Shown here: positions 3,189 to 60,451 of the stretch, in pieces
Position numbering within the stretch: position 1 is the stretch's first letter
Layout of the letters: the number at the start of each line of letters is the position of its first letter
Assembly (NCBI GenBank): GCA_015178975.1
Contig: WHVD01000051.1
Span: forward strand, 1-64,000
Direction: 5' to 3'
Origin: Hysterangium stoloniferum
Lineage: Eukaryota > Basidiomycota > Agaricomycetes > Hysterangiales > Hysterangiaceae
Length of the DNA stretch: 64,000 nt
Made by a program: the position numbers and the translations under genes
The notes under the pieces: model-generated
Told to the model about the DNA's origin: nothing
Database searches by the model: none
Seen by the model: the letters and a program-made list of their open reading frames with translations, nothing else

Positions 3189-3193
3189 AGGGT

Positions 3194-8813: not shown

Positions 8814-8904
8814 AAGAACCTTTATGTCTCAGGTCATATTGCCCCCTGATTGGGAAAAGCAGAATGGTGTTTTCTTCACCTTCCAACAGGGGTGAAACCC
8901 TGGG

Positions 8905-34765: not shown

Positions 34766-35305
34766 CTGTGAAGAGTGGTGGAAGTTCTAACCATTCTATA
34801 TATGAAGAATATCGACCGTTTAGGTATGACACAAAGATGTATTGACTATCTAAGTCTAATACAGACCGAACGTGTATTGACTGTTTAGTTCAATACGGTC
34901 AGGTGAAATAGCTATCTGTTACGACCATGCTGCAACCCTATCGGTCCCGAGGTTATCGCCACTTATCAATGTTTTCAAGTCACCATTTCGGAAACCATCG
35001 GCCCTGAAGCTGATGTATGTTTTCATGAAGATCAAACTCCGTTTACGCCCACGTCAAAATAACTCGTATTGTTTGGTCAAACTTTTGATACGTCCCTTTT
35101 ATTATGTTGATCCATTCAATCTTATGTTTCACATATGTCTATCTATATTTGTAGTCCTTGAACTATTTCCTTTTATAATAATCCTGCTCTCGGTTATCAT
35201 TGGCCTCTGAACTAATCATAAACTTCCCGTTCCTAGTCAAGCTTATTGTTAATGCCATTTTCCGCCCTTCTCCCCATTAGTATTTTCTAGATGCCTGTTA
35301 CTTGT

Positions 35306-35935
35306 TGTGAGAGGTATGGCGAAATACACTCAGGAAATATAGTCAGATGAGCTCTTACTATATTTCCTTTATTATTTCTATTTTTTCTCTTTTATTATAT
35401 CTATAATTAGTTCGACGACCTATGTATGCAATACATCGACTTTTGTGGGCGCACACACGCCAGACTTATATATTCTAGCACCCGTAGTTTAGAACTCAGA
35501 CACTTTTTACACCGCAACCACGACTTACCCAGACACCCATTAGTGTCCTGTAAGTTGTGATTGGTGTATCGTCTCGACCGTCACAGACGGGCTTTAGCTA
35601 TCTACTCTATCAGAGTTTCGAACTGTACCAGTCGAAACTCAATCCTCATCGCTACTCGTGTGGACCACATCCACGCTATTCTATTATTCGACTCTCTAGT
35701 ACTCTACTTTACTCTCGAGCAGTCATTCAGAATCGCACTAGACAGTCAATTCTACTTATTTGTTTTAGCTCTCTACCTTATTCTAGATAGCTACTTCCTC
35801 CTACCGTATTGAACTGAGTAGTCAATACGCATTCGTTCTGTATTAGACTTCAACAGTCAATACATCTTGGTGTCGTACCTAAACGGTCGATATTCTTCGT
35901 ATATAGAATGGTTAGAACTTCCACCACTCTTCACA
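35306..35935 (+). repeat. Solo LTR, family I, at the TATA box of the GY2 5' LTR
   Basis: 630 bp, duplication CTTGT (35301-35305 and 35936-35940). The insertion lies directly upstream of the TATATGAA box, so the GY2 promoter core now follows family-I LTR sequence. Confidence 0.95.
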
Positions 35936-35939
35936 CTTG

Positions 35940-35983
35940 TATATGAACCCGCTGTAGTTGTAGTTACTAGGCAATCAGAATAT
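35940..35983 (+). promoter_or_regulatory. GY2 core promoter and predicted self-primer
   Basis: TATATGAA (35940-35947) lies 33 bp upstream of AATCAGAATAT (35973-35983). That 11-mer is the exact complement of the sequence just after the LTR and is therefore the predicted mRNA 5' end. Confidence 0.65.
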
Positions 35984-36279
35984 CGACTCAGAATACCCTC
36001 ATACATCTGTAACAGTCCCATACTAAGAACCCCCCCCCCCATCCACCTTCGCGTGCGCTCGCCCACTTCCGGCCCCGACCCCTTGGCCCGACGCTCGACT
36101 GGTCCTTCGGTTCCAATCAGTATCTCGCCAAAAGGAGCTCGTTAGGATTAGTCTTCACCCACCCGAAATCTAAGGACACCCTATGGATATTTGCGAGGGC
36201 GCAGCACATAAGCTGAAGCCAAGTCCTTCTGATTGGTCCCTGTCGGCCACCGACATTAGTCAGTTTTCAGTTCTTAACA

Positions 36280-36294
36280 GTATATTCTGATTTC
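36280..36294 (+). other. GY2 primer binding site (self-priming)
   Basis: ATATTCTGATT at 36282-36292, two bases after the LTR, is the complement of AATCAGAATAT at 35973-35983. There is no TGG start as for tRNA primers. Eleven pairs is the length used by Tf1. Confidence 0.7.
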
Positions 36295-36317
36295 ACACTC
36301 ACATTTTCTGTTTAATC

Positions 36318-37616
36318 ATGCCTCCGAGAAGAAATGCCAAGCCAAGCGGCGAAGCAGAATCTTCCACTCTCAAGTCTCCTTTCCTGTATACAGCCTGAGC
36401 TACTCAGAGAACCCCACTACCAGAAACCTCCGAAGAATCTCGCTTTGTGGAGATTACCGGCAATGCTGAAGAAGTATCTGAAGCAACCGAACCCGAAGCA
36501 ACTGAAGAGATTCACAATCAACCAGTTTTGGAACACGAACCCGAGGATGGCGACCAACCTCAGGCTAGTGGCTCCAAGAAGTCTGCAAAAAAGAAACCGG
36601 CTCTCGACCCTGAAGAGACATGGGAATTGTTTTCAGGTACTCTAGGATCCCTTAATGAATTCCTTGAAATCAAGATCAAGGAAAAGGAACCTGGGCAAAC
36701 CCGAGTCAACAAACCCGAGCCATTCATTGGCTCAAACCCGAAGAAATTGCCGACATTTCTTATGCAATGTCGATTCAACTTTCGGGACTGCCCGGCTGCA
36801 TTCGCAACAGATGACCGAAAGGTAAACTTTGCACTCTCATACCTTAAGGATTCCACAGCAGCCTGGTTTGAACCCACATTCTCTGGCCTCACCTCTGAAG
36901 ACCCCGATTGGCTTCATGATTGGGATGCCTTTGTCGAGGAACTCGAAACCAACTTCGGTCCCTACGACCAGACCGGCGATGCCAAAACCACACTTTCTAA
37001 TCTCAAAATGAAAGACACTCAGCGCATCACCGATTACATCGTCCAGTTCAACAACCTCGCCGCGCATTGCGACTGGGGCGATTCGGCCCTCCATTACCAG
37101 TTTTACTCCGGCCTTCCGTCTCGCCTCAAAGATGAAGTTTCCAAAGGAGAGACCAGCAAGCCAAAGACCCTCCCTCTCATGCGTCTGAAAGCCCAAAACG
37201 CAGACGCCCGATACTGGGAACGATGTTCGGAAATTAGTTGCGAAAACCCTTTGGACAAGAAATTGTTGGACAATAAGAACACCAACAAGTCTGGTAATCA
37301 AAACACCAACAGCAGTGGCAACTCGACCTCCGATAAGAAGTCCGAAAACAAAGGGGCTAATGACAAAAAAGGCAAGGGAAAACAGTCGAATAAGTCTCAA
37401 GACAAAGACAAACCCGACTTAACTGGCAAACTCGGCTCCGATGGCAAGCTCCTACCACAGGAAAAGCAACACCAAATGGACAACAACCTTTGTTTGTTGT
37501 GTGCAGATCCCAGACACCGAGTTGCTGCATGCCCAAAAGCCACAAAAGCCCGATCGGCCAATACAGCCACGACCTCACCACTGGCCAAGCTGGCTGCCGA
37601 GTCGAAAAAAGACTAA
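36318..37616 (+). pseudogene. gag: GY2 gag polyprotein
   Basis: Frame of 432 codons from the ATG at 36318 (M-P-P-R-R-N). It carries a single early stop (TGA 36396-36398, likely from CGA); after it the frame is open to 37616. Contents: acidic N-terminus, retrotransposon gag core (FIGSNPKKLPTFLMQCRFNF; YIVQFNNLAAHCDWGD), an asparagine/lysine-rich low-complexity linker and the zinc knuckle CLLCADPRHRVAAC (C-x2-C-x4-H-x4-C, about 37490). GY3 gag has nearly the same length and the same start. The run of six A directly before the stop (37605-37610) is shared with GY3. Confidence 0.9.
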
Positions 37617-40600
37617 GCAACTCTCTGGATTCCGTGCGGTTGGAGAGTTGTGTTGAATCTCCTCGCACACCGGAAAATTGTCACCTTAACGCATCTGCCT
37701 TGTATGATCCTAATTCTTTGTTCATAAATCTTACTTCGGAACCTCTCAGGAATCTCACTTTTCGAGCACTCATAGATTCAGGTTCAACCCATTGTTTTAT
37801 AGATACAAGTTTTTCCCAAAGAAATCAGTTAAAAACCTATGCAATAGACCTGATTCCACTCCGACTCTTCGATGGTACCTCAAACTCTGTAATCTCACAA
37901 GCCTGCGAACTCCGACTTCGGTTCCTGTGTGGAACCTTTCAGACAGTTACGTTTTTTGTAACACAGTTGGACCCGAGTTGCTCCGTGGTTCTAGGACATA
38001 ACTGGCTCACCCGCTACAATCCGTTGATTGATTGGGTATTGGGCAGTATCCATTTCCGAACCCTGTCGGCACCCGATACGACTGGTCCGTTTCCACCTGT
38101 TTCGGCAAATATGGCCTCTACAGCACCTCCGGCCCCCGTGGCAAATCCGAGCTCTCCGCCACCTGTCTCTCTAATAAACACCGCAGCCTTTATGAGAGCC
38201 ATCAAGTTGGACGGCTCCCGAGCATTTACAGTCAATCTTAAAGTTGACGAAGTCACCGGTCGCTTTGCATCCCCGGTGGCCGAACTGATCGCAGATTTGG
38301 AAGGTCTTCCCAAAAAATACCATGAATCTGCAGATGTCTTCAGTAAACAAAAAGCAGATCGACTCGCCCCTCACAGGCCTTACGATTTGAAAATTGATAT
38401 TGAAGATGGTTCACATCCGCCCCTAGGCCCAGTTTATCCTCTCTCGCAGTCTGAATTATCGGCTATCCGAGATTTCTTGGACGAAAATTTGCTATAGGTT
38501 TTATCCGACCCTCAAAGTCTCCTTATGGAGCCTCTGTCCTATTTGTTCGAAAAAAAGACGGTTCCCTTCAACTTTGCGTTGATTTTCGAGGACTAAATGC
38601 AATCACTCGAAAAGACAAGTACCCATTACCACTAATCTCCAATTTACTCGATGCCCCTCAGAAGGCCCGAATCTATACAAAGATAGATCTCAAGCATGCC
38701 TATCATTTGGTTCAGATCACTGAAGGCAACGAATGGAAAACGGCTTTTCGCACTCGCAATGGCTCCTTTGAATGGTTAGTAATGCCTTTCAGCCTCACCA
38801 ACACTCCGTCGGTCTTTCAACGTTTTATCAACGACGTTTTCTCCGACCCCCTCGACGTTTTTGTCATTGTGTACTTAGACGACATCCTCATATTCTCTGA
38901 AGATCCTACACTTCATGACGAACACGTTTGTGAAGTTCTCTGAAGACTCCGAAAACATGGTCTTTTTGCAAATGGTAAAAAATGTTCTTTTGATATCGAC
39001 ACAGTTGAATATTTAGGGTTTATGATGGGACCTGACGGTCTCTGCATGGACAACTCTAAAATTCAAGTCATTCAAGATTGGCCAGAACCCCGAAAGGTTA
39101 AGGATATTCAATCCTTTTTAGGCTTCGCCAATTTTTATCGTCATTTCACAACTACTCAAAAATTACCATTCCGCTCACTCGTCTTACTCGCAAAGACGCC
39201 CCATGGATTTTCTCCGAAGAATGCCGATCGGCATTCCAGGAGTTGAAAAGTGCGTTTACATCTGCCCCTATTTTGTCGCACTGGAAGCCCGACGTTCAAC
39301 TCATCGTGGAAACTGATGCCTCGGACTATGCGCTTGCTGCGATATTGTCCATTCTGGACACTGATGGTGAAGTACACCCAGTAGCTTTTCTGTCTCGCAC
39401 ATTTTCGGCACCCAAACTCAACTATGACGTTCACGATAAGGAACTACTCGCAATATTTGAAGCTTTCAAGACATGGCGACATTATTTGGAAGGCTCGGCC
39501 CACCTGGTAGATGTTATTACAGACCACAAAAATTTAGTTTACTTTTCAACCACAAAACTTCTCACCTGTCGACAAGCTCGATGGTCCGAATACCTCTCTG
39601 CTTTCAACATGGTAATTCGGTTCTGCCCCGGCCACCTTGGTGGAAAACCCGACGCTATGACTAGATGATGGGACGTCTATCCTAAAGAGGGGAGTAGCGA
39701 CTACGCCACAGTTAATCCGCATAATTTCAAGCCTATGTTTTCATCAGAACAACTGTCCGCATCTATCTGAGCCACTTACCTCATTCATCCAGTCTTGCGA
39801 AGTGTTATCCTTATGGATACCGAAAAATTACATCAAGACATTCTATCGGCAATTCCATTAGACCCAGTCACCAAAGCACACCTTGATAACCCGTCCGACC
39901 CCGATCAACCCCGATGGTCATTAGACTCACAAGGTTTCATTAGACTTGACAATCACATTTATGTACCGGACTCCGACACCCTTCGGCTGCGAATCCTACA
40001 ACATAAGCACGACCACCCAATCTTAGGACATTTTGGCCTCAATAAGACCCTCTCACTCATTAGAAGAGAATATACATGGCCCGGCATCCGAGATTTTGTT
40101 AAGCACTATTGTAAATCCTGTACTACATGTTTACGCTCTAAATCACAGCGACACAAACCATATGGCCTACTCAAACAATTACCGATACCAGAAAAACCTT
40201 GGAACTCAATTTCTATGGATTTCATCGAGCACCTCCCGGCATCCGAAGGTCACACAGCAATCCTAGTTGTTGTGGATCGGCTCACAAAACAAAGTATTTT
40301 CATTCCAACATATGACACGATAACATCTGTACAGTTAGCTGAACTATTCGTCACCCATGTATTTTCCAAGCATGGCATTCCATCGCATCTCACATCCGAT
40401 CACGGATCCGAGTTTGTCTCTCACTTCTTTAGGTCACTTGGGAAAGCACTAGACATGAAGCTACACTTCACTTCCGGCTATCACCCGGAAGGCGATGGCC
40501 AAACTGAACGCATGAATCAAACCTTGGAACAATACATCCGTGTCTATTGCAACTATCAACAAGACAATTGGAAATCACTACTACCGCTAGCCGAATTCGC

Positions 40601-41297
40601 ATATAACAATGCACCAAATGCCACTACTGGCATTTCACCTTTCTTCACAAATAAAGGCTACAACCCCAACATTGCAATCCACCCGGAATGTGATCTCACA
40701 TCCGCCTGTGCTCAAGACTTTGTTATAAACCTTGACGAGCTACATCAAGAACTTCGTAAAACTATCGCAATGGCTCAAGAATGATACCAACGGTCTGCAG
40801 ATAAGAACTGACTTCTGCCTCCTGACTTTAAGATCGGAGACCGAGTATTCGTTAAAGCTGAGTTTTTCCGAACTACTAGACCCTCTAAGAAGCTCTCTGA
40901 AAAATATTTAGGTCCTTTTGAAGTTATAGCACAAGCCGGCACACTTTCATGGACGCTTCGGCTCCCCGACAACATGTGTGCAGTGCACCCGGTATTTCAT
41001 GTATCTACGTTAGAACCTTGTGTTCCTAACAGTATACCGGATCACATACAACCACTACCTCCACCCGTGATTATTGATGGGGAACCCGAATTTGAGATAT
41101 CAGAGATCCTAGACTCCAAAATCAACAATTGCCGACGCTCATGCAAATTACTTTATTTGGTCAAATGGGCTGGCTATGAAGGTACAGATGAAGAAACTTC
41201 ATGGATCCTAGCTACCGAGCTTGGTAATGCCTCGGAAATCCTTTTAGGGTTTCACCAAGCTTATCCGAACAAACCCGGTCCTCTCAATTCTTTATAA
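37490..41297 (+). pseudogene. pol: GY2 pol polyprotein (PR-RT-RH-INT-chromodomain)
   Basis: Overlaps gag in the -1 frame. Protease ALIDSGSTHCFID (about 37770); [15 protein letters not shown] (about 38860); RNase H with ETDASDYALAAIL (about 39310) and DHKNLVYFST (about 39520); integrase zinc finger H-x..H..CTTC (about 40010-40130), core MDFIEHLPASEG, LTSDHGSEFVS and GQTERMNQTLEQ; chromodomain LLYLVKWAGYEGTDEETSW (about 41150-41210). Lesions: frameshifts near 38494 and 39155, stops at 38941, 39666, 39769, 40782 and 40810. Compared with GY3 most stops are transitions. Confidence 0.9.
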
Positions 41298-41395
41298 GTC
41301 CATCATGCGGTATCCGACCTTTTCTCGACTATGCCTTATGATTTCACGCTATGATTTGTTTGTTTAAAAAAAAAAAAAAACAATCTATTTACTAT

Positions 41396-42363
41396 CTAAG
41401 TTTCTTCCTCTCCAGCCTCCGAACCCTCTCCCGCACCAACAGCCACCGATACCGCACCACCGACCTTTTCTGACACCCCAATCTTGTGCCCAATTCCATC
41501 GCAACTCGAGACTTCCAAGTATTGCTCAAGCTGACCTCCAAGAGACTCGATAATGCTGGTCTGCTTCTCCAACCCGACACCCAAAAGTCGCAAGTGCTCG
41601 GTCATGAGCCCTTGATGTCGCAGAGTCTTGTATCGGAACCAAGTCGTCTCCGAGAAGTATGTCCGCATAAGGCGGTTTTGCTCTTCTAGAGCATCAGCCT
41701 GTCGCTCCTGGAACGATCCATCGGCCCCCGGGAAGACACACCCAAGCTTCTGATCAGCGCACTCTTGACAAGTGCAGCCCCAACCATTGGCCCGGGGATG
41801 ACAGGTTTGACCCCGTTTCATGCACCGATTGCACTTAGGGTCGTTTTCAGGCCCCACCTTGGGGGCCTGCTTTTGTTTCTATAGGAAAATTATTTAGGAA
41901 AGTTTTTATTTAGGGAAAACTGAACCCACCTTGGGGCTCGACGGCCCCGGTGCATCCTCCTCATCCTCCTCTCCCTCTTCGTCATCCGACTCCGAAGGCG
42001 TCACAGCCTTGCGCTAACAATGTATGTCAGTAAGGTTCGCAAAAGATACCGGAGCCGACTTACCTTTCCCTCCCGCTTCTTTTTTGTCGCCTCCTCCCGC
42101 ACCCGATCGGCCTCCTGTTGCTTATTCTTTGCAAGCACTGCTTCCCAGTGCTTACGTGCGGCCTCTTCCACCGCCTGTTTCTTCTCCTCGGCCTTGATGG
42201 CCGCCAACTCCTCCTTCTCCTTCCGCTCCTCCTCTTCACGTGCCTTTCTCTTCTGCTTGAGTATACGCTGACGCTCCTGCATGTTCACCGTACCACTCGG
42301 GACCGACATGGGTGCAACTGTTAACCTAACTGGGAAGGGTTTCGACCCCGAGCCTATGGTCAT
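41396..42363 (-). CDS. Antisense spliced gene of GY2: coiled-coil protein with paired C-x2-C-x6-C motifs
   Basis: Encoded opposite to gag-pol between the chromodomain and the 3' LTR. Three exons: 42363-42064, 42013-41930, 41878-41396. The introns are 50 and 51 bp (GTAAGT..TTAG and GTGGGT..ATAG); both fall between codons, giving 288 aa without a stop. Residues about 28-98 are a highly charged coiled coil (RQRILKQKRKAREEEERKEK and on), residues 101-128 an acidic linker (ESDDEEGEEDEED). From about residue 143 comes a cysteine cluster, CNRCMKRGQTC then CQECADQKLGC, resembling zinc-binding clusters of fungal regulators. The C-terminal part has a second helical region. The ATG sits in an ACCACCATGACC context, 57 bp below a TATA box. 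GY3 has a decayed homologue with identical intron positions. It converges on pol, the two stop codons being about 100 bp apart. Function unknown; possibly a DNA- or chromatin-binding regulator, or a Gag partner. Confidence 0.75.
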
Positions 42364-42412
42364 GGTGGTTAAGGGAAGAGAAGTAGAATTTCAAGCGCCA
42401 GGACCCCTCGAA

Positions 42413-42457
42413 TTTTTATATGTAAAATTTTGCCGAGTCACATGATGTTTTGACACA
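42413..42457 (-). promoter_or_regulatory. Promoter of the GY2 antisense gene
   Basis: On the minus strand TGTGTCAAAACATCATGTGA (42457-42438) is followed by TATAAAAA (42420-42413), a CT-rich stretch and the ATG at 42363. The 20-mer matches the GY3 counterpart (49929-49948) at 17 of 20 positions, and the TATA-to-ATG distance is 57 against 58 bp. Confidence 0.6.
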
Positions 42458-42537
42458 CCCAGCCGTACCCGACAAGTTTTTACGTACGGGATCTAGATTT
42501 TCGGCCTCCTTGGGATTTCGGCCAAAAGGGGAGATAC

Positions 42538-43270
42538 TGTTATGACCGTGCCGCAACCCTATCAGTCCCGAGGTTATCACCACTTATCAATGTTTTCAAG
42601 TCACCATTTTGGAAACCATCGGCCCCAAAGCTGACGTATGTTTTCGCGAAGATCAAACTCCGTTTACGCCCACATCAAAATAACTCGTATTGTCTGGTCA
42701 AACTTTTGATATGTCCCTTTTATTATGTTGATCCGTTCAATCTTATGTTTCACATATGTCTATCTATATTTGTAGTCCTTGAACTATTTCTTTTTATCAT
42801 AATCCCACTCTCGGTTATCATCGGCCTCCGAACTAATCATAAACTTCCCGTTCCTAGTCAAGCTTATTGTTAATGCCATTTTCTGCCCTTCTCCCCATTA
42901 GTATTTTCTAGACACCTGTTACTTGTATATGAACCCGCTGTAGTTGTAGTTACTAGGCAATCAGAATATCGACTCAGAATACCCTCATATGTCTGTAACA
43001 GTCCCATACTAAGAACCCCCCCCCCCCCCCATCCGCCTTTGCGTGCACTCGCCCACTTCTGGCCCCGACCCCTTGGCCCGACACTTGACTGGTCCTTCGG
43101 TTCAAATCGGTATCTCGCCAAAAGGAGCTCATTAGGATTAGTCTTCGCCCGCCCGAAATCTAAGGACACCCTATGGATATTTGCGAGGGTGCAGCACATA
43201 AGCTGAAGCCAAGTCCTTCCGATTGGTCCCTGTCGGCCACCGACATTTAGTCAGTTTTCAGTTCTTAACA
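42538..43270 (+). repeat. GY2 3' LTR (LTR5)
   Basis: 733 bp, TGTTATGACC to GTTCTTAACA. TATA box at 42926-42933; conserved block at 43183-43216; hairpin TGTCGG-CCA-CCGACA at 43231-43245. A run of C at about 43016-43030 is longer than in the 5' copy. Confidence 0.95.
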
Positions 43271-43718
43271 CTATCTAAAGTAGAATAGAGAGCTAAAACA
43301 AATAAGGAGAATCAACTATGAAGTACAATTCTGAGGGACTGCTCGAGTGTAGAAGAGAATAACAAGAGAGTCAAATAACAGAGTAGCATGGATGTAGTCC
43401 ATGCAAATTGAGATAAAAGTGGAGTTTCGACTAGTATAGTTTGAAACTCTGATTGCATCGATAGTCAAAGCCTGTCTGTGATGGTCAAGACGATACCCCA
43501 ATCACAACTTACAGGACACTAATCAGTGTCTGGGTAAGTCGTGGTTGCGGGGTAAAAAGTGTCTGAGTTCTAACTACGGGCACTAGAATACATAAGTTTG
43601 GCATGTATGTGCCCACAAGAGTCGATGTACCACATACATAGGTCATCAAACTAATTATAAGTGTATAATAAAATAGAGAGAAAGTAGAAATAATAATAGA
43701 AATATAGTATGAGCTCAT

Positions 43719-49009: not shown

Positions 49010-49829
49010 TGTTAGGATACACACACAGGCCGGGTTTCCGGAGAAACCCGCGGGATATCCGGTAGGACTTGGCTTCAGCTTATAGGCTGCGCCCTCGCTA
49101 GATCATGTTGTCCAATTTCAAACGGACGGACGGGGATCCCGGGGAATCCGGGCGGGGTTCGTGGGTCGTAAGTCGTAGGTCGAGGGTCATGGGTCGTGAG
49201 TCGAGTTGGTTGTGAGAGATAGATGCGCCAAAGCCCGTGGGCTCCGACTAGTGCGAGCGATGTGAATCGAGTAAGGTTTTAGAGCGGAAAATATTATTAG
49301 ATTACTGGGGGGAATCTAAGCTAATTTTCTGACTGGATTGTATGTACAACATCTGCCAGTTTATATAGACCGTGGAATGCATGACATACCAAATCCAGTA
49401 ATAACGAAACGAGAACTAACAAAACATGAAACGGGAATAGTAAACACCAAATTGGTGTTAGGAACGGAACGGAACAGAGTGGAGTCCGAATCGTGACAAA
49501 GCATAACCCATAATGGGAAACAGAGCGGGAGCGGAGTCCTAAATTGTGACAGGTCATTTGACTAAAACGGGAACGGGGCTCGATTAGAGCGGTGACAGGA
49601 TTCTAAGTGGGGACCGGTGACTGATGCGTGGGACAAAGACGGACATAGACAGAGACGGAGTCCGGGGGAAGTCCGGTGACTGATATGTGTCGTAATGAGG
49701 TCGAACGTAACGAGTCTTGACGTAATGGAGTCCAGGCAGGAAATCCTATAAACAGACGATTGGTGCTTGTAGCGCGTGGGGGCGTACAGGTTAGTGCCCA
49801 GAGTCCAGCGGGATTGTCCGGTCGTAACA
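49010..49829 (-). repeat. GY3 3' LTR (LTR2)
   Basis: 820 bp; the sense strand is minus, so this left copy is the 3' LTR. Same length as 59632-60451. Confidence 0.93.
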
Positions 49830-49928
49830 GTATCCTCCCTTTATGCCGAAGTCCCAAAGAGGCTCTAGACCTAAATAAGGTTCTTGTCGGCTACGCGCAT
49901 GTGTCAAAAGTCATGTCGGTTACACGTA

Positions 49929-49989
49929 TGTGTCAAAGAGTCATGTGATCTGGAAGGTAAGGTTCAAACGCGACGAGCCTATATAAAAA
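49929..49989 (+). promoter_or_regulatory. Promoter of the GY3 antisense gene
   Basis: TGTGTCAAAGAGTCATGTGA (49929-49948), a related partial copy about 30 bp upstream, then TATATAAAAA (49980-49989). The ATG follows at 50040 after a CT-rich leader. Confidence 0.6.
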
Positions 49990-50039
49990 TTTGAAAAAAT
50001 AGAAATTTCTTCTTCTTCATTACCCCCATCTTCGTCACT

Positions 50040-51013
50040 ATGGGACCAAAACCAACACCACGCAAGCCAATGCCTATAGCAGGGCCCTCCACAAGCACTC
50101 CGTATCGGGCGCCTTGGAGCGCGGCCCAATTGTTGGCACGGTGAGAAGAGCAGCGCCAGCTTCGTGAAGCAGCAGAGAGAGGCGAGGGAGGCTGAGGAGG
50201 CCCTGGACAGAGAGTACCAGGAAGCGTTGGCCACGGAGGAAGAGGCCGCGAAGGAGAGGGAACGTGAGGTGGAGGAGGCTGCGCGAGTGGCCACGGAGAA
50301 CGCCTGGGTGGCTGCAGAGAAAGCCCGGTTGGCCGCGGAGAGGGCCGCCATTGTTGCGGGAAAAGTAAGTCCCAAATTTCACTTGTCGAACTTTTACTGA
50401 CTTGTGATTTTCAGCGCAAAGCGACAGAGGTGGAGTCCGAGTCCGAGGGGGAGCCAGAGAGCCCCCAAAAGGTAGGCCTCATGTCCGTGGAATACCTGCG
50501 GAAACTGACCATATCAACAGAAGGCAAGGAAGGCGGCGCCAGTCCGTCTTCCGACGCGGAACGAGCCGCGGTGTTCCGGTTGCAACGACCGGAACACGGA
50601 ATGCAACCAAAAGGCCGGGATGTTACCAATGCACGCACCTCAAGGCGAGGTGCTCGCTTGTGCATGAGCAGGCCACGGGGTCCGGGACGCGAGACATAAG
50701 CGGAATGGACAGGTTGTCCGGGTTGGATGTGGTCCTTGGACGGATCGCCGAGGGCATCGAGGCCCAAAACGAGTTGCTCCGGAAGAGCAACAAGGTCCAC
50801 ATAGTGGTGGCGAAGGAGCTGTGTGGACTCCGCGAGGAATTTTGGAAGTTCCTGGCGGAGTATGGCGGCTATGTTTATGAGGAGCTGCAAGTCGGGAGTT
50901 CTGAGGATGCCGGATCAGATGATGATGGGGTTGACGCAGAGGTCGCGGAGCTTCCTGAGGAAGTAGCTGAGGCGGCGGGGAAAAAGGACAGCCCCATAGA
51001 AGTAGATGAATAA
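50040..51013 (+). pseudogene. Antisense spliced gene of GY3, decayed homologue of 41396-42363
   Basis: Opposite strand to GY3 gag-pol, same place as in GY2. Proposed exons 50040-50364, 50415-50471, 50521-51013. Introns of 50 and 49 bp (GTAAGT..TCAG, GTAGGC..ACAG) fall after a Gly-Lys and a Gln-Lys, as in GY2 (Gly-Lys and Pro-Lys). Encodes a charged coiled coil (EEEAAKEREREVEEAARVA), an acidic linker (ESESEGEPES) and the cysteine cluster CSGCNDRNTEC ... CYQCTHLKARC, then a long helical/acidic tail ending at TGA/TAA 51013. Lesions: a TGA near 50142 and a frameshift near 50180 in exon 1, and a frameshift near 50620 between the two cysteine motifs. Confidence 0.72.
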
Positions 51014-51997
51014 AATAATAGAAATAATAGAACTTGATAATAATTTGAACATAAAAGTAAAGCGTGAAAACATAAAAAATAAAAGTCAAAGCCAAAGTCC
51101 GCGGAGAGTCCGCTTAAAGACTTGACAAGACATGTCAGAACCTGTAAAAGCAAAGAGAGACATAGGGTGACAGGGAATAATGAAAATGAGTCCAAACGTA
51201 ACACGGGTCCGTGGAGTGCAGTCAGAGAGAAGATAATGGTCCAGGTTTGAGCGGGTAAGCTGTATGAAAGTCAGTAACGATTTCCGTGGCATTACCGAGT
51301 TCCATGGCCAAAATCCATGAGGTTTCTTCATCGGTGCCCTTGTAACCCGCCCACTTGACCAAGTAAAGCAGTTTACAAGTGCGTCGACGCTTGTCTATTT
51401 TTGAATCTAAAATCTGTGAGATTTCAAACTCGGGTTCTCCGTCAATGATGACAGGAGGAGGCGGAGATTGCACGTGATCCGGGATAGTGTTAGCAGTACA
51501 AGGTTCAAGCATAGAAACATGAAATACTGGGTGTACCGCACACATGCTATCCGGAAGCTGTAGAGTCCAAGAAACTGAACCTACTTGTGCGATAATTTCA
51601 AATGGACCTAAATATTTTTCAGCAAGCTTCTTTGATGGACGGGTAGTCCGGAAGAATTGAGCTTTGACATAAACACGGTCGCCAATCTTGAAGTTGGGTG
51701 GCGGGATCCGGTGTTTGTCCGCTGAATGTTGGTATTGCTCTTGGGCGGACAATATTGCAGTCCGGAGTTCCTCGTGGAGCTCGTGGAGGTCCGTGGTGAA
51801 CTCTTGAGCACGAACAGAGGCGAGATTTCGTTCTGGATGTACTGTAATATTTGGATTATATCCTTTATTTGCAAAGAACGGGGAAACACCAGTAGTGGCG
51901 GAGGGTGCATTGTTGTAAGCAAACTCTGCAAGTGGTAACAAGGTTTTCCAATTGTCCTGTTGGTAGTTGCAATATACGCGGAGGTATTGTTCCAAAG

Positions 51998-52717
51998 TGT
52001 TACGACCGTGTCGCAACCCTATCGGTCCCGAGGTTATCGCCACTTGTCAACGACAAGTCACCCTCTCGGAAACCATCGGCCCCAAAGCTGACGAATGTTT
52101 TCGCGAAGATCAAACTCCGTTTACGCCCACATCAAAACAACTCGTATTGTCTGGTCAAACTTTGATACGTCCCCTTTATTATGTTGATCCGTTCAATCTT
52201 ATGTTTCATATATGTCTATCTATATTTGTAGTCCTTGAACTATTTCCTTTTATCGTAATCCCGCTCTCGGTTATCATCGGCCTCTGAACTAATCATAAAC
52301 TTCCCGTTCCTAGTCAAGCTTATTGTTAATACCGTGTTCCACCCTTCTCCCCATTAGTATTTTCCAGACGCCTGTTACTTGTATATGAACCCGCTATAGT
52401 TGTAGTTACTAGGCAATCAGAATATCGACTCAGAATACCCTCATACGCCTGTATCAGTCTCATACTAAGAATCCCCCCATCCACCTTCGCGTGCGCTCGC
52501 CCACTCCCGGCCCCGACCCCTTGGCCCGATGCTCGACTTGTCCTTCGATTCCGATCGGTATCACGCCAAAAGGTACTCACTAGGATTAGTCTTCGCCCGC
52601 CCGAAATTTAAGGACATCCTACAGATATTTGCGAGGGCACAGCACATAAGCTGAAGCCAAGTCCTTCCGATCGGTCCCTGTCGGCCACCGACATTAGTCA
52701 GTTTCCAGTTCTTAACA
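51998..52717 (+). repeat. Solo LTR5 (GY2 family) in GY3 integrase
   Basis: 720 bp, TGTTACGACC to GTTCTTAACA, duplication CAAAG (51993-51997 and 52718-52722). Confidence 0.96.
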
Positions 52718-54381
52718 CAAAGTCTGGTTGACGCGTTCGGTTTGTCCGTCACCTTCTGGGTGATGTCCAGACGTGAAATGTAATGTCATGTCCAAGGATT
52801 TTCCGAGGGATCTAAAGAAGTGAGACACGAACTCTGATCCTCGATCAGAAGTCACGTGGGATGGAACTCCGTGCTTGGAAAATACGTGGATAATGAAAAG
52901 TTCCGCTAGCTGCACGGATGTAATTGTATCATAAGTAGGGATGAATATACCTTGTTTTGAGAATCTGTCAACAACGACTAGAATAGCAAAAAAGCCTTCG
53001 GAATCCGGTAGGTGTTCAATGAAATCCATAGAGATAGAATTCCACGGGTGTTCCGGTACCGGGAGTTGTTTCAAAAGGCCGTATGGCTTGTGTCGCTGAG
53101 ATTTCGAGCGGGGACAAGTAGTGCAAGATTTACAATAGTGCTTAACGAATCCACAGATTCCGGGCCAAGTATATTCTCTTCTTATTAATGATAGAGTTTT
53201 GTTGTACCCGAAATGTCCTGAGAGTGGATGATCATGTTTGTATTGAAGGATCCTGAGGTGGAGGCTGTCGGAGTCCGGTACATAGATCCTATCGTCAAGT
53301 CTAATGAAACCATGTTGATCAAGAGACCACTGAGGTTGATCGGGGTCCACGGGATTGTCCAGATGAGCTTTAGTAACTGGGTCTAGCAGAATTGCCGATA
53401 GAATATCTTGATGTAACTTCTCGATATCCATAATGATAATTCCACGGACAATGGGATTGACGAGGAAAGTTGCGCGGACCGATGGGTAAGTTGTTGATTC
53501 GTGAAAATAGGTTTCAGGTTGTGCGGATTTACTGTTGCATAGTCGTTGCTCCCCTCTTTAGGATAGACGTCCCATCGTCTAGTTAAAGCGTCGGGTTTGC
53601 CGCCGAGACGGCCGGGTCGAAAGCAGATAATCATGTTGAAGGCGGAGAGATATTCAGACCAGCGGGCCTGCCGGTGGGTCAAGAGTTTTGTGGTAGAAAA
53701 GTATTCCAGGTTTTTGTGATCTGTTACAACGTCAATAGGAGCTCCTGAACCTTCCAAATAGTGTCGCCACGCTTTGAAAGCTGAAAAGATTGCCAGAAGT
53801 TCTTTATCATGAACGTCGTAGTTGAGCTCTGCTCCGGTAAAAGTCTGGGACAGAAAAGCCACGGGGTGAACTTCTCCGTCGGAGTCCTGGATAGAGAGAA
53901 TGGCTCCAAGTGCATAGTCCGAGGCGTCCGTTTCAACAATGAGCGAGAAGTCCGGTTTCCAATGCGACAGAATAGGAGCTGTAGAAAAAGAATTTTTTAA
54001 AAGATTGAAAGCTTTTTGACACTTATCATTAAAGTTCCACGGAGTACCCTTACGCGTAAGACGGGTAAGGGGTACCGTGATGTCGGAATATCCACGGATA
54101 AAACGTCTGTAAAAATTGGCAAAGCCGAGGAAGGATTGTATATCTTTAACTTTTCGGGGTTCGGGCCAGTCTTTGATGACTTGCACTTTAGTTTCGTCCA
54201 TGCGGAGTCCATCGGGTCCCATCATGAAACCTAGGTATTCCACGGAGTCCGTGTCAAAAAAAAAAGTACATTTTTTACCATTTGCGAATAAACCATGTTG
54301 CCTAAGCCTCCCGAGAACTTCACGGACTTGTTTGTCGTGTTCCACGGGATTCTCGGAGTAGATAAGAATGTCGTCCAAGTA

Positions 54382-57005
54382 CAGTCGACTCTGTTATAAC
54401 CCATACGTCTTGGGATAGGTCCAGGGGTATGGGTTTTGGGAGAGTATGGGTTATGAGGGAGGTTGATCATTGATGAGGCAAAGTTCACAACTGTCTATAT
54501 AAATTCAAACCTACTAACATTACTGAAGGATGCAAACTATTTAGGTTCGAAATAACTATTCAATTTTGTCTCTTTCATGGATTGCATCTCAAGAACCCGT
54601 GTCCTCTTCCCTAATGAGCCCAGCATCGACTCCAACTTACGCACAAATGGATCATCGAATTCTTTGATGTATTTTCCCAAAACTAATGCTGCCTGGAGTG
54701 CTTCACTGCATGTAGGAGCCGGTTCGAGAAGCCCACTGTTGCTGTCTGCTTCATTGCTATTCCCTCCACCATTTGCTTCCTGCAACACTTTTGCATCCAT
54801 TACAGCTTGGTAGATATCTTCATCAGTTGACTCGAAGATATTGTGTATCTCAGCAGCTGGGTTGAGAAGTTCTGCGATATCCATTCGGTTCGAGCATTGG
54901 AGGGCCCCAGTAAGTTCTAAATCATCCAATGCTTCACGGACAGTGTTCTCAGCATGCACAATAGGATCACTCGGGTTGTGTAATTCGGTGGCATGGATTA
55001 GCGATGAGATGGGAAGGGACGGTTGAATGAGGGGTGATGATGGTGATGAGTTGGTGTTGGGAAGGATGTTGGCTTTACGCCAGCAGTTTCGGATCGTTGT
55101 TGTGTCCACCTCATTCCATGCATCATCAGCAAGTCGCATAGCTTCGAGCTGATCAATGTTGTAGATTTGTGATGGGGTGACACCAGCTTCATAGAGGTGG
55201 ATGGCACGGTTGATAAATCGAGCACGATATTTTGCCTTGAAACAGTGAATGATTCCCTGGTCATTGGGTTGAATGTGTGCAGTGAGGTTGGGCTTGAAAT
55301 TAACAACTCGTATGTTGGTGAGGTTCCCTGGGATGATGTGTCCTGAAAAGTTGTCCTGCAAAAGTAAAATCTTCCAGTCTTCATTCCAGAGCTTCCTATC
55401 CCAATCTAATAGCCACTCCTGATAGAGAGTGCCTGTCATCCATGCCTTTGCATTATTCCGATAATAGAAACCAAGTTGTGCACCGGTCTTGTTCTTGAAT
55501 CCCCGTGGCTTTTGTGCTTTTCCAATGATAAAGGGAGGTAGTTTTTTTGAGCCATCGGCATTTGCTGTGAATAGATATGTAAGTCGAAGTTTCTTTCCTT
55601 TGATGCCAGAGTGTTGCTTGTCAGCAAGTCCACGATCTGGAGGCATACTGTAAATATTTTTAATCAAGCCTAATCAACATTCAAAAATCAAAGAGAACTC
55701 ATGCATAGAAGAGAGAAGATTCATCTGCATTAAAAATATTACATGGCTTGTAGCCTTCTGTTTTGATAAGCTCTTGAATTCGCAGCTGCTCCTTTTCAAC
55801 CATATCAGGAGGTGCAGAGGCAGCTTCACCATGCCGCTTCATATCCTTCAATCCATTGCGTGCTTTAAAACTGCTCAACCATCCATCACTCAGGTTGAGA
55901 CGTTCATCATCTGGTATACCTACAAGGTCAGCAAATGTTTTCCATTTCTGGCGAAGAACTTCGCCAGTAAGAAGCAGCTTGTCTGCCATTGCCTTTGAAA
56001 CCCAAAGGTCTAACATCTCCGTAACCTCTGGATGCTGTGTTTGACGAATCCTTTTGGCTGAGCATGCTGAACTTCTGCTGCTTTCATACTCTGCTCACCA
56101 TCTTGCTTCATCCTTGACCCATGCTGAGACAAGTGGCTGCTTGATTTTGAGGCTGGGATAGATTGTACAAAAATGATTTGCTGTTTTCTTCTGGACCTTA
56201 CCATTGGCATTATGCCAATTTAGGATCTCAATTCTTTGTTGAAGTGTTGCATTTTCTTTTTTCCGAGATTCTGCAAATGGCTTGAGGGGTTTCCCACCAG
56301 GTGTGGGAATATCACTGGTAGTTGGGCCTACAAACAATTTACTGAGTACAACCTGCAATGTACATCTATATAACATAGAAATTTTGAAGTCTTACGCTTT
56401 CGCTTCTTTGAAGGGGCCTCATTCTTCCTACCACTCTCCGCAAGTCTCTGCAGCTTCTGTACAACTGTTTTGGCCTGTGAATCCAACCTGGCAAAGCCTT
56501 GTTCATAGTCAGATGCACTATCCAATGTCTCCACCACCCTTTCTTCATCTATCAAATTCCCATCACCATCAAGCCAGTCCTGATCAACCTCTGATATGGG
56601 TTGACCAGCTTTCAACTCGACCTCGAGCCTGGCTCTCCGTTCTTGAATCTGGTCATAAAGCTTAGTTAATCCTTTTTTGAGAACCTCAACAGGTTTCATG
56701 ATGAGAGAGGTTAGTATCTTAGATTGGTTTCCGGTTATTGTTGCCATTTTGGGACACATATATATGTACTGTATGTAAAATCAATGATTATATAACCAAA
56801 TAATTTCCTAATGTATTATGTCAGGGTTATCCGAGTATACATATGTATGGGTTATGATGACCAAAAATCAGTATGGGTTATTGGTTATTGGAGAGTATGG
56901 GTTATCAATACAAAATCCCTGCAAACTGACTTGGGAAATTGAAAATCCTATGGGTTATTAAGGAGTATGGGTTATATGGGGTATGGGTTATATCAGAGTT
57001 GACTG
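54382..57005 (-). mobile_element. pogo/Tigger-like DNA transposon
   Basis: 2624 bp. The terminal inverted repeats match at 23 of the first 25 positions (left CAGTCGACTCTGTTATAACC; right end read inward CAGTCAACTCTGATATAACC). TA duplication (54380-54381 and 57006-57007), the mark of Tc1/mariner-pogo elements. Both ends carry several copies of a TATGGGTTAT motif. It sits in the GY3 RT gene at the YLDD codons. Confidence 0.93.
54537..56759 (-). pseudogene. pogo/Tigger-type transposase (DDE_1 family)
   Basis: Exon 1 56759-56396, intron 56395-56328 (68 bp, GTAAGA..GTAG), then a second exon to about 55680 and a third from about 55645 to the stop at 54537. An N-terminal coiled region and basic patch (KKRKR) precede a helix-turn-helix (RIEILNWHNANGKVQKKTAN). 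A CENP-B/Tc5-type HTH follows (DGWLSSFKARNGLKDMKRHG), then the catalytic domain with FNADESSLFY, LLLQDNFSGH and IQPNDQGIIHCFK supplying the three aspartates. Lesions: an in-frame TGA near 56093 (W-V-K-D-E-A-R-W-stop) and a second intron whose 5' splice site reads ATGAGT instead of GTGAGT. Both are single transitions, so the copy is probably inactive. Confidence 0.85.
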
Positions 57006-58302
57006 TAAACAATGACGCATACATCAAGCATGTCGGAGAAAATGTCGTTGAGAAAATGCTGAAAAACAGACGGGGCATTAGTGAGTCCAAAAGGGATGAC
57101 CAACCACTCGAAGGCCCCATAGCGGGTTCTAAAAGTGGTTTTCCATTCGTCGCCTGCGGCAATCCAGACCAAATGATAGGCGTGCTTGAGATCTATTTTG
57201 GTGTAAATCCGGGCATTCCGCGGAGCATCGAGCAGGTCAGATATAAGTGGGAGTGGATATTTGTCCTTTTTGGTGACAGCATTGAGTCCTCTAAAATCAA
57301 CACATAGTCGAAGGGATCCATCCTTTTTTCTGACAAACAGAACAGGTGCTCCAAAAGGAGACTTTGAGGGTCGAATAAAACCTATGGACAAATGTTCATC
57401 CAGGAAATCACGGATTGCGGATAGTTCCGTGGACGAAAGCGGGTAAATATGTCCTAGGGGTGGCTGGGCACCATCTTCAAGATCGATTTTTAAGTCGTAT
57501 TCTCTATGAGGCGGAAGCCGGTCAGCTTTTCGCTTGCTAAAAACATCCACGAAGTCATGATATTTCTCCGGGATGCCTTCTAGGTCAGCGGCTTGCTCAG
57601 ATTCAGATACCGGGGTTGAAAAACGTCCAGTTGCTTCATCAATTTTTAAGTTGATAGTGAACGCCTGGGACCCATCCATTTTTGAAGCCCTAATAAAAGC
57701 TGCAGCATTAATCAGAGAAATGGACGGAGGTGCCGTGGGTTCCGGGGAAGCTATAGGTGCCGTAGGGATCACAGGAGTCCTCGAGACTGCAGGTGCTGGG
57801 AAGGCCATGGGTGCCGTGGAGGCCGAGATAGGCGCAGTTTCCTCGGTCGCCGCGGGAGTCCGGAATGTTATACTGTTAGCTATCCAGTCAATCAACGGAT
57901 TGTAGCGGGTAAGCCAGTTATGTCCTAGGACCACCGAGCAACTTGAGTCTAACTGGGTCACATAGAAAGTGACCAATTGAGATGTTCCACAAGGGAAATT
58001 GATGGGTAAATCACAAGCTTGGGTAACAACCGAATTACTTGTGCCATCGAAGAGGTGGAGAGCGACGGGATTTATCGAATAAGTTGACAAAGAATTTTTT
58101 TGCGTGAAGTTTGTATCTAAAAAACAATGAGTCGAGCCGGAATCTATGAGAGCTGAAAAAACGAATTTCGGAATCATATTAGACATAAGTTTAACGAAAA
58201 ATGAATCAGAATGTGAAAGAGCGGATGCGTTGAGGCGAGTGAACTCTTGAATGCGCGGAGAGGCAACGCAACCCCTAACCCGGGCGGAGTCCACGGGGTT
58301 GC

Positions 58303-59595
58303 TTACTCTTTTTTCGAATCGGCAGCCGGTTTGTCCTTCGACGGGGTTTCCATGGAGGCTTTGGCTGATTGACCCTTTGAAGAGTTTGCTTTTGCCAGCG
58401 GACATTCCGGGACTCGATGATTGGGTTTCCCGCACAAGAGACAGAGGTTGTTGTCCATACAACGTTGTCTTTCTTGTGGAGTCAATTTGCCATCAGGTCC
58501 GAGTTTGCCTGAGAGGTCAGGTTTTCCGGCTTGCTTGCCGGACTGTTGACCCTTGTTGTTGTCCTTATTGTCCTTATTGTTGTTGTTGTTGTTTGAAGAC
58601 TTTTTATTGTTCTTCTTGTCAGATTGCGTGGAGTTCTGGTTGCTGGTTGACGAATTGTTGTTATTGTTTTTGTCCTTGGACTTGTTTACCTTGTCCGCGG
58701 ATGTCTCGCGGGCAACTTCCGTGCGACATTCCCAATAACGTGCATCCGCGTTTTGAGCTTTGAGGCGCATATGGGACAGGGTTTTTGGCTTGCCATCTTC
58801 TCCTTTCGAGACTTCATCTTTAAGGCGGGATGGCAGACCGGCGTAGAATTGGTGGTGGAGAGCGGGATCGCCCCACTGACAATGAGCTGCAAGATTATTG
58901 AATTGGACAATGTAGTCCGTGATGCGCTGCGTGTCCTTCATACGAAGATTTGTGAGACTATTCTCGGCTTCTCCTGTCGGGTCATACGGGCCGAAGTTGG
59001 TTTCAAGCTCCTCAACAAACGCCTCCCAATTTTCAAGCCAGAGTGGCTCTTCCTCGGATATTCCGCTAAAAGCCGGTTCAAACCATTTCAATGCGGATCC
59101 CGACAAATATGACAGTGCGTAGTTGACTTTTTGGGAGTCCGTGGAGAATGCAGTGGCACGATCACGGAAGTTGAAGCGACATTGCATGAGGAAAGTAGAG
59201 AGTTTGTTTGGGTTGGAACCCGTGAAGGGTTCCGGAGCATTGACTTTTGACCGTGGAGGTTCTTGTTCCTTTTTCTTTCATTCTTCAAGCAGGTGCGTCA
59301 TGAATTTATCTATGGTACCTGCTAAAAATTCAGAAGTAGGATCCCCCAAATGCGGTCATTGAACAGGCGGAGGATTTTCAGGAGGGATTTTGACACCTTT
59401 GCCCTTGTCGGGGGCCACGGAATCGTCCTCGCGCTCGGATTCGTCCAGGTTTTCCGGGACTTCTTCGATGCGGGCTTCTTCCATGGGTTCCGACTGGTTC
59501 GCAAGCGTCTGACTGGTATACAGAGTTAACGGGGAATGAAGAGTCGATGGTCCAGATATTGATGACTGCGCGCGTGTACTTCTTCTTGGTGGCAT
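58303..59595 (-). pseudogene. gag: GY3 gag polyprotein
   Basis: ATG at 59595 (M-P-P-R-R-S), 430 codons, open except for two TGA stops near 59357 and 59280. Gag core (GSNPNKLSTFLMQCRFNF; YIVQFNNLAAHCQWGD), asparagine/lysine-rich linker, zinc knuckle CLLCGKPNHRVPEC (about 58460-58420). Ends TCG-A6-GAG-TAA, with the six A at 58314-58309 exactly as in GY2. Confidence 0.9.
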
Positions 59596-59618
59596 AATGA
59601 AAACAATCTGCGAGTATT

Positions 59619-59631
59619 AGTCAGAAAATAC
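59619..59631 (-). other. GY3 primer binding site (self-priming)
   Basis: On minus, ATTTTCTGACT (59629-59619) two bases after the 5' LTR is the exact complement of AGTCAGAAAAT at 59956-59946 in the LTR. Confidence 0.7.
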
Positions 59632-60451
59632 TGTTAGGATACACACACAGGCCGGGTTTCCGGAGAAACCCGTGGGATATCCGGTAGGACTTGGCTTCAG
59701 CTTATAGGCTGCGCCCTCGCTAGATCATGTTGTCCAATTTCAAACGGACGGACGGGGATCCCGGGGAATCCGGGCGGGGTTCATGGGTCGTAAGTCGTAG
59801 GTCGAGGGTCATGGGTCGTGAGTCGAGTTGGTTGTGAGAGATAGATGCGCTGGAGCCCATGGGCTCCGACTAGTGCGAGTGATGTGAATCGAGTAAGGTT
59901 TTAGAGCGGAAAATATTATTAGATTACTGGGGGGAATCTAAGCTAATTTTCTGACTGGATTGTATGTACAACATCTGCCAGTTTATATAGACCGTGGAAT
60001 GCATGACATACCAAATCCAGTAATAACGAAACGAGAACTAACAAAACATGAAACGGGAATAGTAAACACCAAATTGGTGTTAGGAACGGAACAGAACGGA
60101 GTGGAGTCCAAATTGTGACAAAGCATAACCCATAACGGGAAACGGAGCGGGAGCGGAGTCCTAAATCATGACAGGTCATTTGACTAAAACGGGAACGGGG
60201 CTCGATTAGAGCGGTGACAGGATTCTAAGCGGGGACCGGTGACTGATGCGTGGGACAAAGACGGACATAGACAGAGACGGAGTCCGGGGGAAGTCCGGTG
60301 ACTGATATGTGTCGTAATGAGGTCGAACGTAACGAGTCTTGACGTAACGGAGTCCGGGCGGGAAATCCTATAAACAGACGATTGGTGCTTGTAGCGCGTG
60401 GGGGCGTACGGGTTAGTGCCCGGAGTCCGGCGGGATTGTCCGGTCGTAACA
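59632..60451 (-). repeat. GY3 5' LTR (LTR2)
   Basis: 820 bp, sense strand minus. The conserved block read on plus is GGACTTGGCTTCAGCTTAT and following bases (59687-59720); the hairpin CGGGTTTC-CGGA-GAAACCCG is at 59653-59672. Confidence 0.93.
59946..59989 (-). promoter_or_regulatory. GY3 core promoter and predicted self-primer
   Basis: Minus-strand TATATAAA (59989-59982) lies 33 bp upstream of AGTCAGAAAAT (59956-59946), the same spacing as in GY2. Confidence 0.65.

What the first reader, a model, noticed from the sequence alone, without database searches (positions are those of the whole stretch)
41396..42363. Intact spliced gene on the opposite strand of a chromovirus, with a zinc-cluster-like motif
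GY2 carries, antisense to gag-pol and inside the element borders (5-bp duplication CTATC outside both LTRs), a three-exon gene with clean splice sites and 288 codons. It codes for coiled coil, acidic linker, and C-x2-C-x6-C twice. Its pol is wrecked while this frame is intact. I know of antisense accessory ORFs in some plant gypsy elements, but not of this gene in fungal Tf1/sushi elements. Candidate roles are transcriptional control, silencing escape, targeting with the chromodomain integrase, or Gag association; all are inference.
Basis: partly seen in the sequence, partly recalled or inferred. Interest (0 to 1): 0.9.

Follow-up and report, generated by a model that had tools for sequence, protein, structure and literature searches.

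The report
Spliced antisense gene in fungal retrotransposons
A jumping gene of a mushroom carries, on its opposite strand, an extra intron-containing gene that natural selection has preserved in related copies and families, and which looks like a zinc-binding nuclear regulator.

Summary
Confirmed. GY2 (34917-43270) carries an antisense three-exon gene (42363-41396, minus strand, 288 codons). The genome, most likely Hysterangium stoloniferum, holds many copies: 133 of the 150 best chromodomain matches have it downstream on the opposite strand. In 72 aligned copies GT/AG is kept at all but one readable splice site, ATG42363 in 69 of 72, six cysteines in 70-72 of 72; codon positions 1/2/3 vary 0.089/0.103/0.244 and introns 0.23/0.29. 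Against a divergent subfamily (B) dN/dS is 0.11-0.18. A second element in the window (GY3, 49010-60451) has a homologue in the same slot with the same exon plan. The gene types share a C-x2-C-x6-C-x9/10-C-x2-C-x6-C cluster and a TATA/E-box promoter; the protein diverges much faster than pol.

Best reading: a gene with its own promoter encoding a nuclear regulator of the element, HBZ-like in logic (gene shown; regulator inferred). Antisense genes in this slot are known in plants and in Botrytis Boty (brtn): a new variant of a known kind. Not tested: RNA, other fungi. 'Pol wrecked, frame intact' in this copy alone is weak evidence (P about 0.19).

The parts
34912..34916 (.). target-site duplication CTATC, left
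34917..36279 (+). GY2 5' LTR, interrupted by an insert of about 630 bp (about 35306-35935)
36280..36294 (+). putative self-priming PBS: ATATTCTGATT is complementary to AATCAGAATAT at 35973 in the LTR, about 36 bp after TATATGAA
   Evidence: sequence; LTR positions
36399..37616 (+). gag (Retrotrans_gag), longest open frame
37394..41297 (+). pol (protease, RT, RNase H, integrase, Tf2-1-like SH3, chromodomain), broken by frame changes and TGA
41396..41878 (-). antisense gene exon 3: six-Cys cluster, long helix, acidic tail, stop
41879..41929 (-). antisense gene intron 2 (51 nt); donor GT 71 of 71, acceptor AG 68 of 69 readable copies
41930..42013 (-). antisense gene exon 2: RKA..., acidic linker, SSPKK
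42014..42063 (-). antisense gene intron 1 (50 nt); donor GT 70 of 70, acceptor AG 70 of 70; CTRAY branch-like motif in 68 of 72 copies
42064..42363 (-). antisense gene exon 1: start codon and charged, probably helical region
42364..42537 (-). putative promoter/5' UTR of the antisense gene: TATA (CATATAAAA, 42422-42414), E-box TCATGTGAC (42445-42437), two GGCCGAAA (42523-42516, 42506-42499), overlapping the polypurine tract next to the 3' LTR
42538..43270 (+). GY2 3' LTR
43271..43275 (.). target-site duplication CTATC, right
49010..49829 (-). GY3 3' LTR (element on minus strand)
50040..50364 (+). GY3 antisense gene homologue, exon 1 (this copy is broken)
50415..50471 (+). GY3 antisense gene homologue, exon 2 (RKATEVESESEGEPESPQK)
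50521..51013 (+). GY3 antisense gene homologue, exon 3 (six-Cys cluster; frame changed in this copy)
51222..59277 (-). GY3 gag-pol region, broken and with a nested insert
59632..60451 (-). GY3 5' LTR, 97.3% identical to 49010-49829

Best explanation
A clade of chromodomain-bearing Ty3/gypsy elements carries a genuine, spliced, protein-coding gene antisense to gag-pol, between the chromodomain and the 3' LTR. It reads towards pol from a promoter of its own (TATA, E-box) that lies between its ATG and the 3' LTR. Because it is antisense, its introns are not introns of the sense genomic RNA and so survive reverse transcription. The product (about 290 aa: charged helix, basic and acidic stretches that look like nuclear signals, a Zn2Cys6-like six-cysteine cluster, a long helix of coiled-coil type, an acidic tail) most probably works in the nucleus as a dimeric DNA-binding regulator of the element's own LTR and antisense promoter, acting in trans on sister copies. 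Shown: gene, exon plan, position, selection, homology between families. Inferred: transcription and splicing, zinc binding, dimerisation, nuclear location, DNA binding, regulation.
For: Exon plan. 72 copies: readable donors 70/70 and 71/71, acceptors 70/70 and 68/69, ATG 69/72, codon-position diversity 0.089/0.103/0.244 against introns 0.23 and 0.29; six Cys in 72, 71, 72, 72, 72, 70 of 72. dN/dS of five A copies against B 0.11-0.18; of six frames of exon 3 only the antisense frame is free of stops in both A and B, with dN/dS 0.22. Starting from the chromodomain instead of the gene, 133 of the 150 best matches have the gene within 3 kb downstream on the opposite strand. GY3 homologue: same slot, three exons, same GK|RKA junction, same Cys pattern; hhalign 89%, E 2.3e-6, blastp B-C 43% over 37 residues, E 1e-6. 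Promoter blocks shared by A, B and C; TATA word CATATAAAA in 64 of 72 copies. Long helix in exon 3 of A, 56 residues at pLDDT 90 or more. For the regulator step: protein diverges like LTR rather than pol (A-C pol pieces 76-83%, gag 60%, antisense protein about 22-43% in aligned parts); published analogues with nuclear or DNA-related roles.
Against: No RNA data. The cluster never reaches the Pfam Zn_clus cut-off (best 18.7 bits against 21; the first half-motif matches the second half of the profile). AlphaFold is poor for the cluster (pLDDT about 60, then 50). No PDB match of note. Copies with a long open pol frame but a truncated gene exist (2 of 12 deleted, 2 partial), so the gene is not needed in cis; this fits a trans-acting product but also a dispensable one. 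Binding to CGG-type or any other site is untested. No direct evidence of nuclear location.
Confidence: 0.5

Rival explanations
1. The product is an anti-silencing factor aimed at host chromatin or RNA defence (as VANC does for some plant DNA transposons; recalled) rather than a regulator of its own promoter.
For: Fast divergence of the protein against slow pol; heavy transition-type decay of copies (37 of 39 LTR differences) shows that the host or its chemistry attacks these elements.
Against: No domain suggests it; conserved six-Cys cluster with a helix reads more simply as DNA binding; fast divergence is explained as well by co-divergence with the LTR.
Confidence: 0.18
2. The product is an integration or nuclear-import cofactor that works with the chromodomain integrase or Gag.
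For: Gene lies next to the chromodomain; basic stretches (KKKREGKRK, SPKKQK) look like nuclear signals; Vicient and Casacuberta suggest such a role for plant antisense ORFs (PMC7264820).
Against: It would be made from a separate antisense transcript, hence in no fixed ratio to Gag-Pol; it diverges far faster than integrase (83% against about 22-43%).
Confidence: 0.2
3. The antisense transcript acts as RNA (dsRNA or siRNA control) and the frame is incidental.
For: The mRNA would be complementary to about 1 kb of the sense RNA; antisense RNA control of elements is known (PMC7264820).
Against: dN/dS 0.11-0.18 between A and B, conserved splice sites, start and cysteines, frame-specific constraint. 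RNA effects may exist besides the protein.
Confidence: 0.03
4. A captured host gene carried as a passenger, or a domesticated host gene copied into the element, without a role for the element.
For: Spliced gene with its own promoter looks like a host gene; origin unknown; host homologues cannot be excluded because only the best 150 of 519-969 candidates were scored.
Against: Kept in elements of three divergent types and under selection while spreading with them; no homologue outside this genome in three protein searches.
Confidence: 0.07

Closest known systems
brtn of Boty-like elements (Botrytis cinerea, Ty3/gypsy)
   Same: Fungal gypsy element with one extra gene antisense to gag-pol between pol and 3' LTR (named in PMC7264820 and in the reference list and methods passage of PMC8365987).
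   Different: Ascomycete; sequence, introns and domain content not seen here, so homology to our gene was not tested.
Antisense additional ORFs of plant elements: maize Grande gene23, RIRE2, Retand (TRP28), PvRetro13
   Same: Same slot and orientation, kept in most copies, own antisense promoter and nuclear product reported for Grande gene23; DNA binding suggested for TRP28 (PMC7264820 parts 1-2; PMC11963269 passages).
   Different: Plant elements; Retand is described there as non-chromovirus; different protein families by name; the word 'intron' does not occur in the main text of PMC11963269.
HBZ and APH-2/3/4 of deltaretroviruses
   Same: Antisense, spliced gene of a retroelement encoding a (for HBZ nuclear, zipper-bearing) regulator of sense transcription (PMC3185765, passages).
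   Different: HBZ transcription starts inside the 3' LTR and HBZ is a bZIP protein; here the inferred promoter lies between gene and LTR, and there is a six-Cys cluster. No homology claimed.
Fungal Zn2Cys6 (Gal4-type) regulators, PF00172
   Same: Cysteine spacing falls within C-x2-C-x6-C-x5-12-C-x2-C-x6-8-C (pattern recalled), with a long helix after the cluster.
   Different: Below the Pfam cut-off, match in a shifted register, basic CxxCRxRKxKC helix not evident, no DNA-binding evidence.

Membership tests
Antisense additional ORF between pol and 3' LTR (aORF-3R) | lies between the end of pol and the 3' LTR, opposite to gag-pol | tested here: met
   133 of 150 chromodomain matches
Antisense additional ORF between pol and 3' LTR (aORF-3R) | present in most copies of the family | tested here: met
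   133 of 150; 4 of the other 17 were fetched and all 4 hold remnants; 13 not examined
Antisense additional ORF between pol and 3' LTR (aORF-3R) | coding conservation comparable to gag-pol | tested here: met
   dN/dS bins 0.16-0.49 against 0.20-0.41 for the chromodomain frame; absolute divergence is much higher than pol
Antisense additional ORF between pol and 3' LTR (aORF-3R) | antisense transcript | not testable with these tools
   no RNA reads on hand
Zn2Cys6 binuclear cluster (PF00172) | cysteine spacing | tested here: met
   2-6-10-2-6 in A and B, 2-6-9-2-6 in C
Zn2Cys6 binuclear cluster (PF00172) | Pfam gathering score | tested here: not met
   7 of 21 members match at E up to 5, best 0.0019, 18.7 bits against 21; type C 3.7
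Zn2Cys6 binuclear cluster (PF00172) | two-helix zinc cluster fold | tested here: inconclusive
   AlphaFold pLDDT about 60 and 50 in the cluster
Zn2Cys6 binuclear cluster (PF00172) | zinc and DNA binding | not testable with these tools
   needs protein work
Tf1/sushi-type chromovirus (the element) | chromodomain after integrase | tested here: inconclusive
   PF00385 24.2 bits against cut-off 25.1, E 3e-5; Tf2-1-like SH3 PF24626 68 bits, above cut-off
Tf1/sushi-type chromovirus (the element) | self-priming complementarity between PBS and transcript start | tested here: met
   11-nt match; the transcript start itself is inferred from a TATA-like word
Tf1/sushi-type chromovirus (the element) | RT phylogeny | not tested
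HBZ-like antisense factor | bZIP domain | tested here: not met
   no bZIP match in Pfam for the window protein or type C at E up to 1 and 5
brtn (Boty) | sequence homology to brtn | not tested
   sequence not available in the papers seen

The most novel reading that the evidence does not exclude
A clade of basidiomycete chromoviruses has evolved, independently of deltaretroviruses, an HBZ-like layer of control: an intron-containing antisense gene with its own promoter, for a zinc-cluster DNA-binding factor that recognises the element's own LTR or promoter and co-diverges with it, so that each element family carries a private transcription factor. Antisense placement is what lets a retroelement keep spliced genes through its RNA stage.
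Probability: 0.4. Interest if true: 0.82.

Novelty: new variant of a known kind. Interest (0 to 1): 0.64.

Why it matters
LTR elements are usually thought to need only gag and pol. Here a third, spliced, antisense gene has been kept by purifying selection in at least three diverged types of element within one genome, some represented by near-identical and so presumably young copies. It gives a natural comparative series (fast-evolving protein, fast-evolving LTR, slow pol) with which the old question of what antisense genes of retroelements do can be tested directly, and it extends the antisense-gene theme of plant elements, Boty and deltaretroviruses to basidiomycete chromoviruses. It also shows how a retroelement can retain introns.

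Tried and rejected
Chance frame: rejected. Intact frame in this copy as proof of selection: rejected as weak (P about 0.19). Recent one-off capture: rejected, since types A, B and C share the gene. 'Some elements lack it': in part an artefact of divergence; of six loci fetched because the first gene list did not show the gene, L079 and L081 hold a complete diverged gene region (L081 with a frame change in exon 1) and L080, L082, L083, L084 hold remnants. Filing the cluster under Pfam Zn_clus: not done, below cut-off. IMG/VR: none. Solved structures: nothing of note. Structure of the cluster: low confidence, so no fold search was run. Two further loci (C540, C529) could not be fetched.

Limits of the counts: 78 loci were fetched; six were dropped as duplicates or partial (L001, L003-L006, L059), leaving 72 rows, the window copy entering once in place of L009. 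These rows were found by exon-3 or DNA similarity, so exon 3 is ascertained; exon 1, exon 2, introns and promoter are not. Copies with frame changes were read in the columns of the window gene, insertions left out and stop codons skipped, which can raise dN. In one search, 1761 of 2556 pairs fall in the dS bins; the rest had fewer than 200 comparable codons or dS of 0.9 or more or undefined. dN/dS rises to 0.43-0.49 for the closest pairs (dS under 0.05), as expected for copies decaying after insertion; this is against any claim that inserted copies are kept intact. The claim that nothing is printed on such a gene in basidiomycete elements rests only on paper searches of an open-licence library.

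Full report
Setting. The window lies in a 111-Mb genome of 554 contigs. Two predicted proteins of Hysterangium stoloniferum are the only database relatives of the antisense product, and the contig length given for one of them, 381,332, equals that of contig C537, on which its pieces match (up to 98% identity). The organism is therefore most likely H. stoloniferum, an ectomycorrhizal basidiomycete (inference).

The observation. GY2 has LTRs at 34917-36279 (with an insert of about 630 bp) and 42538-43270, flanked by CTATC. The LTRs differ at 39 of 727 aligned sites, 37 of them transitions. Gag is largely open, pol is broken by two frame changes and five TGA. Integrase is followed by a Tf2-1-like SH3 domain (68 bits) and a chromodomain just under the Pfam cut-off (24.2 against 25.1 bits). 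An 11-base word next to the LTR is complementary to a word in the LTR about 36 bp after a TATA-like sequence, as in self-primed Tf1-type elements. Antisense to all this, exons 42363-42064, 42013-41930 and 41878-41396 join to 288 codons with phase-0 GT..AG introns of 50 and 51 nt.

Copies. A DNA search and a protein search of the own genome gave 40 and 150 scored matches, out of 167 and 519 first-look candidates. I aligned 72 distinct copies over 40812-42540. Readable splice sites: donor 1 70/70, acceptor 1 70/70, donor 2 71/71, acceptor 2 68/69; ATG42363 in 69 of 72. Mean pairwise difference at codon positions 1, 2, 3: 0.089, 0.103, 0.244; inner introns 0.230 and 0.292; the 5' flank 0.100. The six cluster cysteines are kept in 72, 71, 72, 72, 72 and 70 of 72 copies. 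23 of 72 copies are fully open by the strict count and 25 of 72 encode at least 255 residues from ATG; many others hold stops, in the listings mostly TGA. So the gene is under purifying selection on its protein, while single inserted copies decay like any other part of the element.

An independent count starts from the chromodomain: of the 150 best matches to GY2's chromodomain (3192 candidates), 133 have an antisense-gene match within 3 kb downstream on the opposite strand; four of the other 17 were fetched and all hold remnants; 13 were not examined. Of 12 rows with a pol frame open over 1286 residues or more, eight have a full-length open exon 3, two a partial one and two a deletion. Distances of gene and chromodomain agree over 59 copies (Mantel r 0.61, 0 of 2000 permutations), so the gene travels with its pol.

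Subfamily B. Loci picked because the first list did not show the gene proved to hold a diverged one (L079, L081). B has 32 rows at 77% identity or more; 11 are full length, 98-100% identical and without stops. A and B proteins are about 61-62% identical, their chromodomain regions 92%. Window against L079: dN 0.25, dS 1.40, ratio 0.18; four other open A copies: 0.105-0.156. Reading exon 3 of window and L079 in all six frames, only the antisense frame is free of stops in both (dN/dS 0.22); the sense frame that shares its wobble positions also has a low ratio (0.29) but six and three stops; the other four exceed 1.2.

A second element in the window. GY3 (minus strand; LTRs 49010-49829 and 59632-60451, 97.3% identical) has, in the same slot and opposite to its own gag-pol, a homologue with three exons (50040-50364, 50415-50471, 50521-51013), a TATA box, and the same GK|RKA junction at intron 1. 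The window copy is broken (a stop in exon 1, frame changes in exons 1 and 3), but a copy elsewhere (L085) reads through 294 residues with cysteines 2-6-9-2-6. 150 of 969 candidates were scored for this type; by my hand count 124 of 150 rows have no stop and 24 rows share one score and identity, as for identical young copies. Homology of type C to A and B rests on hhalign (89%, E 2.3e-6), blastp of B against C (43% over 37 residues, E 1e-6; A against C alone is not significant, E 0.05), slot, exon plan and promoter. The upstream regions of A, B and C align in blocks: AACAGTATC, GCCGAA-TCCCAA-GAGGC, GTCGG-TAC, TGTGTCA, TCATGTGA and TATATAA. The first of these overlap the polypurine tract, so not all of this conservation need serve the antisense promoter.

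Rates. Between GY2 and GY3 the integrase piece is 83% identical, the chromodomain piece 81%, the RNase H piece 76%, gag 60%; the antisense proteins align only weakly (22% over 181 columns, not significant) outside the cluster, and a blast of the GY3 LTR against the window finds the GY2 LTRs nowhere. The antisense protein thus changes like the LTR and not like pol, as a factor that recognises its own cis sequences would; an arms race with the host would look similar.

What it is like. [quoted passage not shown] PMC11963269 and PMC8365987 passages). HBZ and related proteins of deltaretroviruses are spliced antisense products that restrain sense transcription (PMC3185765 passages). The present gene shares slot and logic, but differs in its conserved introns and in a six-cysteine cluster with Zn2Cys6 spacing. 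I do not file it in PF00172: the score is under the cut-off and matches in a shifted register, and the predicted structure of the cluster is of low confidence; only the long helix after it is well predicted.

Verdict. Gene, selection and generality: near certain (about 0.97). Regulator of its own element acting in the nucleus: about 0.5. Novelty: new variant of a known kind.

Noticed in passing
window 49010-60451: A second chromodomain element (GY3, minus strand) carries a homologous but very diverged antisense gene on the + strand at 50040-51013; many near-identical open copies elsewhere in the genome.
   Followed up: yes
window 54537-55673 (-): An open frame inside GY3 that looks by eye like a DDE transposase of the pogo/Tigger kind (name recalled, no family search run).
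   Followed up: no
window 34917-43270 and copies: Decay is transition-biased: 37 of 39 LTR differences, and stops in copies are mostly TGA, as if from CpG or RIP-like C-to-T change.
   Followed up: partly
L080 and L083: Copies with a pol frame open over 1286 residues or more but a deleted antisense gene; they may have been helped in trans.
   Followed up: partly
window 43902-44143: Tandem array of a 16-base unit (AGAGTCGGAGACTGAG).
   Followed up: no
window about 35306-35935: An insert of about 630 bp in the 5' LTR of GY2, related to repeats at 31.0-31.4, 43.3-43.7 and 45.1-47.7 kb.
   Followed up: no
window 1899-7231: A third chromodomain element (+ strand) with no cysteine-cluster frame of 45 residues or more seen downstream on the opposite strand (7200-9800); the gene may be limited to the GY2/GY3 clade.
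   Followed up: partly
window 15811-17256 (-): An open frame of 481 residues that looks by eye like a host F-box/leucine-rich-repeat type gene.
   Followed up: no
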